This document shows positions 41,846 through 47,070 of a stretch of 64,000 nt of DNA, one piece after another. The notes beneath the pieces are model-generated. The model saw only the letters and a program-made list of their open reading frames with translations, had not been told where the DNA came from and ran no database searches. A program made the position numbers and the translations under genes. The stretch comes from an uncultured Sulfitobacter sp. (GTDB lineage: Bacteria; Pseudomonadota; Alphaproteobacteria; Rhodobacterales; Rhodobacteraceae). The DNA is taken from NCBI GenBank assembly GCA_905182645.1, contig CAJJCJ010000006.1, positions 1-64,000 of the forward strand, written 5' to 3'. Within the stretch, counting starts at the first letter, position 1. Every line of letters starts with the position of its first letter.

Positions 41846-42793
41846 ATGTTGTCACGTCGTACCCTCGTAGGCGCGCTAAGCGCGTCAATCGCACTGGCAT
41901 CTGCGCCAGCCGCATTTGCACAAGACGAAATCTACATCCCGCTTATTTCGAAAGGCTTTCAGCACCAGTTCTGGCAGGCCGTAAAATCCGGTGCAGATCA
42001 GGCTGCTGAAGAATTTGGTGTTCGCATTACGTTCGAAGGCCCTGACAACGAAACGATGGTCGATCGCCAGATCGACATGCTTGCTGCCGCATTGGCTAAC
42101 AAACCTGCGGCGATCGGTTTTGCCGCACTCGACAGCCAAGCGGCGATCCCGCTACTGCGTCAGGCGTCAGACGCCGGTATTCCGATCATCGCGTTTGACA
42201 GCGGCGTGGACAGTGACATTCCGATGTCTACTGCAACCACTGACAACGTCGCCGCTGCTGCACTGGCCGCTGACAAGATGGCTGAATTTCTTGGCGGAAC
42301 TGGCACCGTTGCCGTTGTGGCTCACGATCAGACCAGCCGCACAGGTATCGACCGTCGCGATGGTTTCCTGAACCAGATCGCAAGTGAATATCCAAACATC
42401 AAAGTGGTCAGTGTCCAATACGGCGCAGGTGATCAGTTGCAGTCTACCGAAATTGCCAAGGCGATGCTGACGGCCAATCCTGGTTTGGGCGGTATGTTCG
42501 GCACCAACGAAGGCTCTGCCATTGGTATTGTGAACGCTGTACGCGAAATGGCGGCCGAAGGCGTCACCATCATCGGTTACGATTCTGGCAGGGCTCAGAC
42601 GGATGCGATCCGCGAAGGTTTGATGGCCGGCGCGATCACGCAGAACCCTGTCGGAATTGGCTATGAAACTGTAAAAGCGGCGGTTGCTGCGATGAACGGC
42701 GAAACACTGCCTGCGATCATCGACACAGGCTTCTACTACTACGATCAGTCCAACATCGACGACGCTGAAATTCAGGCCGTCCTTTACGATTGA
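41846..42793 (+). CDS. Sugar ABC transporter substrate-binding protein (RbsB type)
   Basis: Periplasmic binding protein of 315 residues. MLSRRTLVGALSASIALASA with cleavage after AFA (near residue 25) is the export signal; the twin Arg could be Tat-like. The mature fold belongs to the ribose-binding family (LISKGFQHQFWQAVKSGADQ, GFAALDSQAAIPLL). AGGAGG precedes the ATG. A short hairpin (TGCCC/GGGCA) lies in the gap after the permease. Confidence 0.92.
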   Translation: MLSRRTLVGALSASIALASAPAAFAQDEIYIPLISKGFQHQFWQAVKSGADQAAEEFGVRITFEGPDNETMVDRQIDMLAAALANKPAAIGFAALDSQAAIPLLRQASDAGIPIIAFDSGVDSDIPMSTATTDNVAAAALAADKMAEFLGGTGTVAVVAHDQTSRTGIDRRDGFLNQIASEYPNIKVVSVQYGAGDQLQSTEIAKAMLTANPGLGGMFGTNEGSAIGIVNAVREMAAEGVTIIGYDSGRAQTDAIREGLMAGAITQNPVGIGYETVKAAVAAMNGETLPAIIDTGFYYYDQSNIDDAEIQAVLYD

Positions 42794-42868
42794 TTTAAAT
42801 CGCGTCGCGGTTCATTCTCGCTTGGGCTGCGACGCCCTTTTTCTCCCAACCCTAAGTTCGAGGACACC

Positions 42869-43726
42869 ATGAAATTATTGCGCTATGGCCCCGCGGGCCA
42901 TGAAAAACCTGGTTGCCTTGATGTAGAAGGCCGCGTTCGCGACCTGTCGGGGCACGTTGATGATATCGCTGGAGCGGCACTTCTGCCCGACGCGATTGCG
43001 GCTTTGAAAGCCTTGGATGTTTCATCACTTCCCATCGTTGAAGGTACCCCGCAAAGCGACCTGCGACTTGGCTCATGCGTTGGTCAAACCGGAAAATTTG
43101 TTTGTATCGGCCTTAACTATGCCGATCACGCCGCTGAAAGCGGAATGGAGGTGCCACCGGAGCCTGTGATTTTTAACAAGTGGACTTCGGCGATTATTGG
43201 GCCCGATGATGATGTTGTCATTCCGCGCGGCTCTAAGAAAACCGACTGGGAGGTCGAGCTTGGCGTCGTTATCGGCAAAGGTGGTGTTTATATCACTGAG
43301 GCCGATGCGATGGATCACGTCGCGGGTTTCTGCGTGATCAATGACGTGTCAGAGCGGGAATACCAGATTGAGCGGGCAGGCACATGGGACAAGGGCAAGG
43401 GCTGTGATACGTTTGGTCCGACTGGTCCGTGGTTGGTTACACCTGATGAGGTTGGTGACTATGACAACCTTGCGATGTGGCTAGAAGTTGACGGCACCCG
43501 CCATCAAAACGGCTCGACAAAAACGATGGTCTATAAGGTGCCGCACCTGGTTTCGTATTGCTCACAATTCATGAGCCTTCAGCCGGGCGACATCATCTCG
43601 ACAGGCACCCCTCCAGGCGTCGGCATGGGTCTGAAGCCTCAAACCTATCTTTCAGGTGGTGAAACCATGCGCCTTGGGATCGATAAGCTTGGCGTTCAAA
43701 CACAGGTCGTTCGTCCCGCGAAATAA
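42869..43726 (+). CDS. FAH-family hydrolase, predicted 2,4-diketo-3-deoxy-L-fuconate hydrolase
   Basis: Fumarylacetoacetate-hydrolase-fold enzyme of 285 residues that would split the diketo acid into pyruvate and L-lactate, ending the pathway. Metal ligands are in PVIFNKWTSAI region followed by DWEVELGVVIGKGG (Glu-x-Glu and the downstream Asp in FCVINDVSEREYQ), plus STGTPPGVGMG near residue 250. Last gene of the plus-strand arm, 75 bp after the binding protein. Confidence 0.85.
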   Translation: MKLLRYGPAGHEKPGCLDVEGRVRDLSGHVDDIAGAALLPDAIAALKALDVSSLPIVEGTPQSDLRLGSCVGQTGKFVCIGLNYADHAAESGMEVPPEPVIFNKWTSAIIGPDDDVVIPRGSKKTDWEVELGVVIGKGGVYITEADAMDHVAGFCVINDVSEREYQIERAGTWDKGKGCDTFGPTGPWLVTPDEVGDYDNLAMWLEVDGTRHQNGSTKTMVYKVPHLVSYCSQFMSLQPGDIISTGTPPGVGMGLKPQTYLSGGETMRLGIDKLGVQTQVVRPAK

Positions 43727-44127: not shown

Positions 44128-44757
44128 TCATATTTTGTGGTTGTTTCCGGCCCCTAAGCTAGCCTTCAAGAACTCTATCAGATGCGCCAGTTCAGCTTGA
44201 GAGACTGTCATATCAATGGCCTGTCTGCTTGCTGCGCACTCAATGGTGTCCAGAATGAAATGGGCGGTATGGAAGGTGTCTCCCGTGAATCGCCAGGTCC
44301 TTTGTTCGATCCCTTTTATAAGGAGGGAGGAAAGCGCCTCTGCCAAAGTCCGGCGCACTTCAAGGAACAACGCCGTAATATCCGGCACCCGCATCGCCTC
44401 TGCCGTAATTTCGGCCGTTAGAATCGCGACGCCCTTGTCCGAGACAATGGCCCAATAGTCCTGAAGAAAGGTTTCGAATGTCTCGTATGCCGGTCCGTCG
44501 ATAGCGAGACGTTCAATGAAAGGAGCAACCAATTCCCCCTCCAGCATGGCCACGCCAATGAGGAAATCATGCTTTCCCGGGAAATGATTGTAGAGGTTCC
44601 CAATACTGACATCGGCACGCGCGGCGATATCGCGCATACCAGTTTGGTGAAATCCATTGTCGATAAAGCATGCGATGGCGGCCTCCAAAATGTGCTGCCT
44701 CCGCTGCGCTGACGCAATTTCACGTTTGGATGGTTCACGCGCCAGTGTTTCGATCAT
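44128..44757 (-). CDS. TetR-family transcriptional regulator
   Basis: 209-residue repressor. The N-terminal helix-turn-helix is IACFIDNGFHQTGMRDIAARADVSIGNLYNHFPGKHDFL (about residues 30-68); the rest is a helical ligand domain that is not assigned. It starts 2 bp after the amine oxidase stop on the same strand, so the two are co-transcribed. A TetR-like palindrome lies upstream of the pair (46047-46062). Confidence 0.9.
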   Translation of the reverse strand: MIETLAREPSKREIASAQRRQHILEAAIACFIDNGFHQTGMRDIAARADVSIGNLYNHFPGKHDFLIGVAMLEGELVAPFIERLAIDGPAYETFETFLQDYWAIVSDKGVAILTAEITAEAMRVPDITALFLEVRRTLAEALSSLLIKGIEQRTWRFTGDTFHTAHFILDTIECAASRQAIDMTVSQAELAHLIEFLKASLGAGNNHKI

Positions 44758-44759
44758 CG

Positions 44760-45986
44760 CTATGCTCCTCGGCCATAGGCTTTCAGGATGGTGTTCAACG
44801 CCTGACTGACGACGGTTTCATCCGTTTCTGACGATAGTGTATAGGCGGCTGGCCCACCATTAAAACACACAAGAACTGGCTTTCCAGTCATCGGATAAAG
44901 ATTCATCCAAGCGTTGTACTGCCCGCGCGGGAAATCTGTGAACGGCGTGATGATGTTATGTTTTTCTGCATCCCAAAAGACCTCATCAAATTGCAGATAA
45001 ATCTTGTCGAGGGTGCCAAACCCAAGGCGATCAATGGCATGTTGCGTTTCAACTGGGAGTGCCGGATCAAATGCGATGCTTCCGGCTTTCAACACGCCAA
45101 GTGGGACGGTTATAATGACAGCGTCAAAATCATGCTCGGTCACATCCGAGGTCACGCGTACCTGATCAGACGCGTATTCAACTGCTGTCACGCGCTCATT
45201 CAATGAAAGATCGTAACTGCCTTCAAACCGTGTCAGGATTTGATCGTACCCATCTGGAAACAACATTTCGTCGCCTGTGTAGTCATCCGTCCAAAGGTAC
45301 GCCCATATGTTAAGTGTGCCCTTCGCCGCGCCAGAATGGTTGTCGTATGTGTTAATTTCATCGATCCAATCGGGCACCTCAGCATCCGTTAGCTCACGCC
45401 CTTCGGATCGCGCAATCCATTCCGGATCGTACACAACTTTGCGCATCCCTGCCTGATTGGTGACGACGGTTAACGGATTGCCATCAATGCCATGCAGCCA
45501 GCTTGCCCCAAGGTCCGCTGCAAAACCCAGCGACCGATCTGTGTAAACCCTACCGCCGATCCGGTCTCGACCTTCGATGACCTGAACCTGAAGACCTGCA
45601 TCTGTAAGCACACGCGCGGCCACAAGACCCGATAGCCCAGCACCGATCACGCCGATGCGCTTGTGACCACTTGCGCGTACCTGCTCCGCAACCAATCGCC
45701 CGGATTCCAACGCCGCGTGCACTGAGCTATTGCGGTCAGGGTTGGCGGCCTCGCCAGCAAAATAAACCTTTCCAGCCACCGGCCTCGCCAAGCGGCGGTG
45801 ATCTTTGCGTTTCGATCCCTTAGCAATATGCGAATAGGTGCCAAAAGAAAACGGATCGCGGCTCCAGTTGGTGCGTAGATAGCCCAACAAATTTGGCCCA
45901 TTTGAAGCCTGTGCCTTAGCAGTCCATGGAAAAAACCCTGACAATACCGTAGCCCCTGCTCCTGCTAACATATCTCTTCGTTTCAT
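44760..45986 (-). CDS. Flavin amine oxidase with permuted domain order
   Basis: FAD-dependent amine oxidase-like protein of 408 residues. After a Tat-like signal ([19 protein letters not shown]) comes [19 protein letters not shown] and [20 protein letters not shown] (residues 37-100), which in normal family members forms the C-terminal FAD segment. Only then comes the Rossmann motif [16 protein letters not shown] (residues 111-126) and GGRV. The protein stops after a substrate-domain part ([12 protein letters not shown]) where the moved segment should follow. The ATG at 45986 has AAGGGG upstream. Substrate unknown. Confidence 0.8.
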
Positions 45987-46046: not shown

Positions 46047-46062
46047 GAACGAACGTTCGCTC
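46047..46062. promoter_or_regulatory. TetR-type operator
   Basis: GAACGAACGTTCGCTC contains the perfect 10-bp palindrome CGAACGTTCG (46050-46059), about 65 bp upstream of the amine oxidase start. Size and form suit a TetR dimer, so autoregulation of the oxidase-tetR pair is likely. Confidence 0.55.
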
Positions 46063-46281: not shown

Positions 46282-47070
46282 GAGACATCGATGATCCATT
46301 CGGTGTCTGGCCTGTTGGACGCAGGCGGGATCAATCGCGAACGCTCGTTCCGCGAACCGCACCACACCGCATCGATGGCCGTAATCGTGGGCAGTGGGCG
46401 CTGCGCAAAACCCGGTGAAATTAGTCTTGCCCATAACGGTGTGCTGTTCATGGATGAATTCCTAGAATTCCCGCACACTGTTTTGGAAACGTTACGCCAA
46501 TCGTTAGAGACAGGGGAAGTCATCGTGGTGCGCGCCAATGCGCACATCAAATACCCCTGCAAGTTCATGCTCGTCGCCGCTGCAAACCCGTGCAAATGCG
46601 GGTACCTAACGGACGCCAGCCGTGCGTGTTCTCGTGCGCCAATTTATGGTGAAGATTACATGAGGCGTATTTCAGGTCCGCTTATGGACAGGTTTGATCT
46701 ACGGGTCGAAGCCCCGCCCGTTGCATTCACGGACCTAGATTTACCGCAAGACGGAGAAAGCTCTTAAAGCATCGGCGCACGGGTCAACAAAGCGCGTTTG
46801 GCCCAAACGGCGCGCGTTCAAGGCAAGGATCATTTGCGCGTCAACGCAGATGCAGAAGGCAAAGTATTGGACTAAATCGCGACACCAGACGCCGAAGGTC
46901 GCGCGCTATTGATCCGCGTTGTGGAACGGTTTGGCTGATCGGCACGCGGATACCACCGTGTTTTGCGGGTCGCGCCAACGATTGCGGGCTTGGACGGATC
47001 AGATGGCGTGCGGCACCCGCACATCGCCGAGGCCATCAGTTACCGTTTGGCATTATCCAAAGACGATTAA
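46282..47070 (+). pseudogene. comM: ComM/YifB (Mg-chelatase-like AAA ATPase) remnant
   Basis: C-terminal half of a competence-linked branch-migration helicase. It begins abruptly at SMIHSVSGLL, continues through FREPHHTASM, HNGVLFMDEF (Walker B), LVAAANPCKCGYL and ISGPLMDRFDLRVE, then has in-frame stops (TAA at about 46765, TAA at about 46873 and TGA at about 46936) before ending at [18 protein letters not shown]. About the first 240 residues, with Walker A, are missing. Its last codons overlap the gshB stop. Confidence 0.9.

What the first reader, a model, noticed from the sequence alone, without database searches (positions are those of the whole stretch)
44760..45986. Circularly permuted flavin amine oxidase
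The segments that close the FAD site at the C-terminus of ordinary family members ([32 protein letters not shown]) sit here at residues 37-100, before the [12 protein letters not shown]ossmann motif at 115-126. The protein ends where they would normally follow. In the amine oxidase fold the two ends of the FAD domain are adjacent, so such a permutation could be functional. A Tat-like leader in front suggests export after folding with FAD. It is paired with its own TetR regulator.
Basis: partly seen in the sequence, partly recalled or inferred. Interest (0 to 1): 0.75.

Follow-up and report, generated by a model that had tools for sequence, protein, structure and literature searches.

The report
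Circularly permuted bacterial amine oxidase family
A flavin enzyme in marine bacteria carries the tail end of its usual sequence at the front instead, and the same rearranged order is kept in dozens of related genes, so the reshuffled protein is real, maintained by selection and probably works.

Summary
Residues 36-105 of the 408-aa protein (window 44760-45986, minus strand) match the C-terminal end of a flavin amine oxidase profile; residues 113-406 match the rest, apart from a missing cap piece. The same order is kept in all 42 rows compared (the window plus 41 relatives): 26 in the window's group (Rhodobacteraceae) and 16 in an unnamed family of another class. No row shows a remnant of the other end. 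Change is strongly constrained (dN/dS 0.11-0.15 to the three nearest relatives). FAD motifs, the catalytic lysine and the LSD1 Y761-position tyrosine are invariant. So this is a true natural circular permutation, not an artefact. All 26 rows of the window's group have a twin-arginine leader; none of the 16 others does within the protein. The TetR pairing, with a palindrome found once in the genome, holds only for the window and four near relatives. The window's group also lacks about 30-45 residues of substrate cap. Open: one origin or two (one clade not rejected, p-AU 0.43-0.44), 3D placement of the moved segment, substrate, activity. My literature searches listed no permuted amine oxidase.

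The parts
44760..45986 (-). circularly permuted flavin amine oxidase, 408 aa (P0001)
45900..45986 (-). Tat-type leader, residues 1-29 (MKRRDMLAG... AKAQ)
   Evidence: RR plus hydrophobic stretch before the moved segment in 26 of 26 rows of the window's group; cleavage not tested
45672..45899 (-). moved segment, residues 30-105: family C-terminus, with W41, Y51 (LSD1 Y761 position), FAGE 76-79, S88 (LSD1 T810 position)
   Evidence: residues 26-100 match PF01593 371-439/443 alone; alignment to LSD1; conservation
45633..45704 (-). new junction, residues 95-118: C-terminal helix (modelled 89-106) running into Rossmann strand 1 (110-114) and the GxGxxG motif
   Evidence: H90 to GxGxxG distance 25 in 23 of 26 and 16 of 16 rows; pLDDT 91, 97, 93 for residues 91-100, 101-110, 111-120
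44763..45662 (-). body, residues 109-408: family N-terminus to the last substrate-domain helix, with K328 (LSD1 K661 position)
44128..44757 (-). TetR-family regulator, downstream, 2 bases between the stop and its start
   Evidence: PF00440 E 1.6e-15; homologue in 5 of 25 loci of the window's group
46047..46062 (.). palindrome GAACGAACGTTCGCTC, candidate TetR operator, 61-76 nt before the start
   Evidence: form found upstream in all 5 TetR-paired loci; only site for the pattern in the own genome

Best explanation
The gene encodes a natural circular permutant of the flavin-containing amine oxidase fold, closest among solved proteins to the LSD1/LSD2 and polyamine oxidase branch. Shown by sequence: the last about 70 residues of the ordinary protein now come first, joined with practically no linker (C-terminal helix into Rossmann strand 1). 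The new ends lie in the loop between the last substrate-domain helix and the Trp-bearing strand that re-enters the FAD domain. The arrangement is a selected property of a gene family. Inferred: the old N- and C-termini are neighbours in the fold, so the chain closes the same FAD site, with K328 from the body facing Y51 from the moved segment. The enzyme oxidises an amine (polyamine-like or other) with O2 to an imine, giving H2O2. In the window's group it is exported folded with FAD by the Tat route, and in the window's own clade it is controlled by the downstream TetR acting on the palindrome before the gene. It most likely arose by tandem duplication and in-frame fusion of an ordinary gene, followed by loss of the outer parts.
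For: Separate Pfam matches of the two pieces. Single-copy profile coverage in rotated order in 42 of 42 rows, window included. One contiguous tblastn match over nearly the whole query in relatives, against split or partial matches in canonical proteins. Found in 15 of 394 genomes of the family at E <= 1e-30, own genome included, and in 16 of 198 genomes of a second family (a 17th match there is canonical). dN/dS 0.119, 0.153 and 0.112 to L046, L024 and L023, and 0.100, 0.136 and 0.067 in residues 30-105. W41, Y51, E79, the glycines of GxGxxG, E138, GGR 144-146 and K328 invariant in 42 of 42. AlphaFold2 with 22 rows: pLDDT 80, pTM 0.82; best solved matches LSD2, LSD1, polyamine oxidase. Tat-type leader in 26 of 26. 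Operator-like palindrome in 5 of 5 TetR-paired loci, one site in the own genome.
Against: The good model depends on canonical proteins entered as separate fragments: with the five permuted rows alone it is poor (pLDDT 44, pTM 0.50). No coordinates were at hand, so contact of the moved segment with the FAD domain was not measured. Doubling the sequences raised the best profile match by more than 20 bits in only 1 of 42 permuted rows; I put this down to leader or upstream residues between the copies, but it is no support. The LSD1 T810 position is S or T in 26 of 26 rows of the window's group but M in 16 of 16 of the second family. No activity, FAD binding or export was observed, and no duplication intermediate was found.
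Confidence: 0.86

Rival explanations
1. The moved segment completes the FAD site of a neighbouring chain rather than its own, so that the enzyme is an obligate swapped dimer or oligomer.
For: Sequence cannot tell intra- from inter-chain packing, and no coordinates or interface data were available.
Against: The junction is short and of fixed length (25 residues from H90 to GxGxxG in 39 of 42 rows), with helix and strand modelled at high confidence in one chain.
Confidence: 0.08
2. Assembly or frame artefact, or a partly duplicated decaying gene.
For: A broken Mg-chelatase-like gene lies just upstream, so the neighbourhood holds decaying DNA.
Against: Same order in 41 relatives, including named records, with no remnants; dN/dS about 0.11-0.15; no second full copy in the genome.
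Confidence: 0.01
3. A true permutant that has lost amine oxidase chemistry and does something else: another oxidoreductase, a dehydrogenase with another acceptor, or an FAD-binding sensor.
For: Rows of the window's group have 39-44 residues where 52 of 57 canonical rows have 71-108 in the substrate cap (the other 5 canonical rows have 21-39). None of the 25 NCBIfam matches shown of 36 comes near its cut-off. The T810 position differs in the second family.
Against: The lysine at the LSD1 K661 place, the Tyr at the Y761 place and the FAGE glutamate are invariant in 42 of 42 rows.
Confidence: 0.15

Closest known systems
LSD1/LSD2 (KDM1A/KDM1B) and maize polyamine oxidase, PF01593 flavin amine oxidases
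   Same: Both parts homologous; lysine, tyrosine and FAD motifs at matching places; nearest solved folds.
   Different: Order of the segments is rotated; substrate cap shortened in the window's group; Tat-type leader. Catalytic roles of the LSD1 residues are recalled.
Canonical relative in an Anaerolineae MAG (L027)
   Same: 37% identical over the body and 38% over the moved segment; best-scoring canonical row for the six permuted queries tried.
   Different: Ordinary order; longer substrate cap by alignment.
Circularly permuted FMN-bind1 domains in multi-flavinylated proteins (PMC11334425; two passages seen)
   Same: A natural permutation of a flavin-carrying domain in bacterial proteins.
   Different: A different, small FMN domain in a multi-domain chain; a helix is moved to the C-terminus; described from predicted models.

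Membership tests
Flavin-containing amine oxidase (PF01593) | Homology over the domain | tested here: met
   Whole protein 215.7 bits against cut-off 19.8; both pieces match alone
Flavin-containing amine oxidase (PF01593) | Rossmann GxGxxG at the N-terminus and FAD-closing segment at the C-terminus | tested here: not met
   Order rotated in 42 of 42 rows: a permuted derivative, not an ordinary member
Flavin-containing amine oxidase (PF01593) | Catalytic lysine and tyrosine at the LSD1 K661 and Y761 places | tested here: met
   K328 and Y51 invariant in 42 of 42; places matched by the alignment; roles recalled
Flavin-containing amine oxidase (PF01593) | FAD binding and amine oxidation | not testable with these tools
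   No assay
Natural circular permutant | Same parts, each once, in cyclically rotated order | tested here: met
   the window protein lacks profile positions 111-141 (a cap piece)
Natural circular permutant | Old termini adjacent in the fold, moved part in its old 3D place | tested here: inconclusive
   pTM 0.82 with canonical fragments, 0.50 without; no coordinates
Natural circular permutant | Heritable and maintained | tested here: met
Tat substrate | Twin-arginine motif followed by hydrophobic stretch | tested here: met
   26 of 26 rows of the window's group; start codons not checked row by row
Tat substrate | Export dependent on TatABC | not testable with these tools
   No assay
TetR-controlled gene pair | Adjacent regulator and shared operator-like site | tested here: met
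   Window and 4 near relatives only
TetR-controlled gene pair | Regulator binds the site | not testable with these tools
   No assay

The most novel reading that the evidence does not exclude
Two separate lineages of amine oxidases, one in Rhodobacteraceae and one in a family of another class, were circularly permuted independently at the same loop and with the same seamless junction. This would be convergent circular permutation of a large cofactor enzyme.
Probability: 0.35. Interest if true: 0.82.

Novelty: new variant of a known kind. Interest (0 to 1): 0.66.

Why it matters
To my knowledge (recalled, and no counter-example in the searches listed in the report) natural circular permutations of large cofactor enzymes are seldom documented with a living family tree. 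This one spans 20 genera by the group codes, and two classes. It gives permuted versions of the fold shared by MAO, LSD1 and polyamine oxidase, with free ends in a new place, useful for enzyme engineering. It makes a testable case for how permutation happens and whether it is repeatable. Order-bound profiles score such proteins in pieces, so annotation may undercall them.

Tried and rejected
Artefact or partial duplication: rejected by relatives, absence of remnants and selection.

Doubled-sequence profile test: a gain above 20 bits in 1 of 42 permuted and 0 of 38 canonical rows. An unhelpful test, not support.

Independent origins: each permuted clade is well supported (96/97 and 100/100; 98/98 and 100/100) and the two are not joined in the best trees, whose deep forks are open. 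Holding them together costs only 2.0 and 2.3 log units (p-AU 0.44 and 0.43), so neither one nor two origins is shown. A second test (window's group plus L027) did not finish and was not run again.

Permuted-only structure prediction failed for lack of depth. A viral structure library gave weak matches, best TM-scores about 0.5. A viral-contig scan with the second permuted type found no relative. Plasmid searches gave 178, 13 and 294 records, of which 25, 13 and 15 were listed; the five loci fetched are canonical, the rest were not classified.

Wider sampling: class outside the family, 123 genomes, own genome only at E <= 1e-25. Phylum, 398 genomes, 11 at E <= 1e-20: 5 permuted, from the two families, and 6 canonical. 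Class of the second family, 185 genomes: G871 and one canonical match. These are draws, not full surveys.

Rows dropped: canonical L124, L125 and L126 repeat L111, L075 and L076; they were left out of the profile and but are inside the 57. L035 was left out of the 38. L054 is cut by a contig end and was left out of both trees, as were seven near-identical rows (72 of 80 used) and more (53 of 99). L047 was not recognised by the gene caller and is not in its 25; downstream of L054 was not seen. In one search one of 16 second-family rows (L074) was flagged; the stretch lies before its ATG, so I count 0 of 16. For L056 and L060 the script's best RR lies upstream of the one I take for the leader, which is visible in the printed sequence.

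Full report
What is there. The gene at 44760-45986 (minus strand) encodes 408 residues. Residues 26-100 searched alone match positions 371-439 of the 443-position Pfam amine oxidase profile (E 5.5e-12). Residues 101-408 alone match the same profile with a best stretch of 135-366 (E 2.4e-50) and a Rossmann profile at their start. The segment that normally ends the protein therefore comes first. The phmmer comparison with LSD1 shows the same: along the LSD1 chain the matches are query 110-210, 202-405, then 39-96 (the last weak on its own, i-Evalue 0.15).

Not an artefact. Nearly the whole query is matched as one stretch in relatives: 78% identity in G049 and 48% in G066, 77% in Rhodobacteraceae bacterium HTCC2083, 78% in a Planktotalea MAG, 48% in a Rhodophyticola MAG and 51% in Marivita lacus. 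Canonical relatives mostly give two matches with the segment after the body, some the body alone. With both segments as probes, each long frame that both hit is clearly permuted or canonical. I kept one row per place: 26 permuted rows in the window's group (the window, 21 other genomes of its family code f1, and the four named records) and 16 from the second family (f95). That f1 is Rhodobacteraceae is inferred from the named relatives. With a profile of 54 canonical relatives, 42 of 42 rows carry the C-terminal part first and once, with no sign of the other end; 38 of 38 canonical rows, which helped to make the profile, have the ordinary order. The own genome holds no other full copy (84% complete).

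Spread. In the window's family 15 of 394 genomes match at E <= 1e-30, own genome included, and all 15 are permuted. An order-level draw gave 24 of 390 at E <= 1e-20: 12 strong ones, permuted, and 12 partial matches, all 12 fetched and canonical. A phylum draw of 398 found two more permuted genes in a family of another class. There 17 of 198 genomes match at E <= 1e-40, 16 permuted and one canonical. By group codes the permuted gene is in 18 genera of f1 and 2 of f95. Outside these two families I saw none (limited draws).

Selection and active site. Between the window gene and L046, L024 and L023, dN/dS is 0.119, 0.153 and 0.112 overall and 0.100, 0.136 and 0.067 in residues 30-105; synonymous change is near or above one per site, so values are rough. 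In all 42 rows W41, D44, G49, Y51, G78, E79, H90, the glycines of GxGxxG, E138, GGR 144-146 and K328 are invariant. From the alignment and the offset between LSD1 constructs (166), K328 falls on LSD1 K661, Y51 on Y761 and S88 on T810; that these line the active site is recalled (a Y761H structure is listed). Position 88 is T in 21 and S in 5 rows of the window's group, but M in 16 of 16 of the second family and T in 43 of 54 canonical rows. The moved segment thus brings part of the active site with it, and the second family differs there.

Anatomy of the permutation. The distance from H90 to the GxGxxG motif is 25 residues in 23 of 26 rows of the window's group and in 16 of 16 of the second family. 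In the 36 canonical frames where the script found the matching place it lies 14-43 residues from the C-terminus. The old C-terminal helix therefore runs into Rossmann strand 1 with practically no linker. The new ends lie between the last helix (ending at about Y404) and the strand with W41. Rows of the window's group have 39-44 residues where the second family has 72 and 52 of 57 canonical rows 71-108; five canonical rows are as short, 21-39.

Structure. With 22 rows (5 permuted, 9 canonical bodies, 8 canonical C-terminal pieces) AlphaFold2 gives pLDDT 80 and pTM 0.82, with residues 91-120 at block means 91-97. Among the 50 matches shown, Foldseek ranks LSD2, LSD1 and polyamine oxidase first, TM-score about 0.6 by query length; I take the loss to be the segment that an order-bound aligner cannot place, but no aligned ranges were given. 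With the five permuted rows alone the model is poor. No coordinates were available, so placement of the moved segment is likely, not shown.

Leader and regulation. A twin-arginine motif with a hydrophobic stretch precedes the segment in 26 of 26 rows of the window's group and lies inside none of the 16 second-family proteins, so export is not the general reason for the permutation. A homologue of this TetR follows the gene in 5 of 25 loci with flanks: the window, L023, L024, L046 and L056. In these five a palindrome of the form GARCGAACGWTCGYTC lies about 60-80 nt before the start; the pattern occurs at one place in the own genome. Other neighbours vary. In the second family a TetR gene lies convergent in L069, L099 and L100 (Pfam checked for L069).

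One origin or two. Both permuted groups are well-supported clades. They are not joined in the best trees. 25 of 25 rows of the window's group (L054 left out) and 16 of 16 of the second family score higher against canonical L027 than against any row of the other permuted group. The shortened cap may lower the scores between the groups. Holding all permuted rows together is not rejected (p-AU 0.44 and 0.43). The identical junction length fits one origin, or a geometric constraint acting twice.

Literature. Listings of searches for circular permutation with amine oxidase (6 of 6 shown), flavoprotein (19 of 19), flavoenzyme (8 of 8), monoamine or polyamine oxidase (20 of 126 shown, none of the 20 with the permutation term) and FAD-binding domain plus amine oxidase (0) named no permuted amine oxidase; two searches were general. 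The polyamine oxidase phylogeny PMC7576179 does not use 'permut' (term search of the main text). PMC11334425 describes a permuted FMN-bind1 domain (two passages seen). The library lacks most subscription journals and preprints, so novelty is provisional.

Verdict. A genuine, conserved natural circular permutant of the flavin amine oxidase fold, very probably an FAD enzyme, and by its leader exported in the window's group. Substrate and role are unknown; I expect amine oxidation with H2O2 release.

Noticed in passing
46282-46728 (+), remnants to about 47060: Broken magnesium-chelatase-like (ComM/YifB type, name recalled) gene: the PF01078 match starts at profile position 56 and the stretch after 46770 has no Pfam match and an internal stop.
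   Followed up: partly
rows of the window's group, query residues 197-239: The substrate cap is about 30-45 residues shorter than in the second permuted family and most canonical relatives, suggesting a more open active site.
   Followed up: partly
L109 (genome G382): A genome that holds the permuted gene also holds a canonical relative elsewhere, so both orders coexist.
   Followed up: no
second-family permuted rows, position of query S88: Methionine in 16 of 16 rows where T or S is usual (LSD1 T810 place), hinting at another substrate.
   Followed up: no
41846-43726 (+): Sugar-type ABC substrate-binding protein followed by a fumarylacetoacetate-hydrolase-family gene close to 2,4-didehydro-3-deoxy-L-rhamnonate hydrolase (405 bits, below the cut-off of 500).
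   Followed up: no
L046 and L024, permuted genes: Synonymous distance between L046 and L024 is 0.23 in the moved segment but 1.16 in the body, which hints at recombination inside the gene.
   Followed up: no
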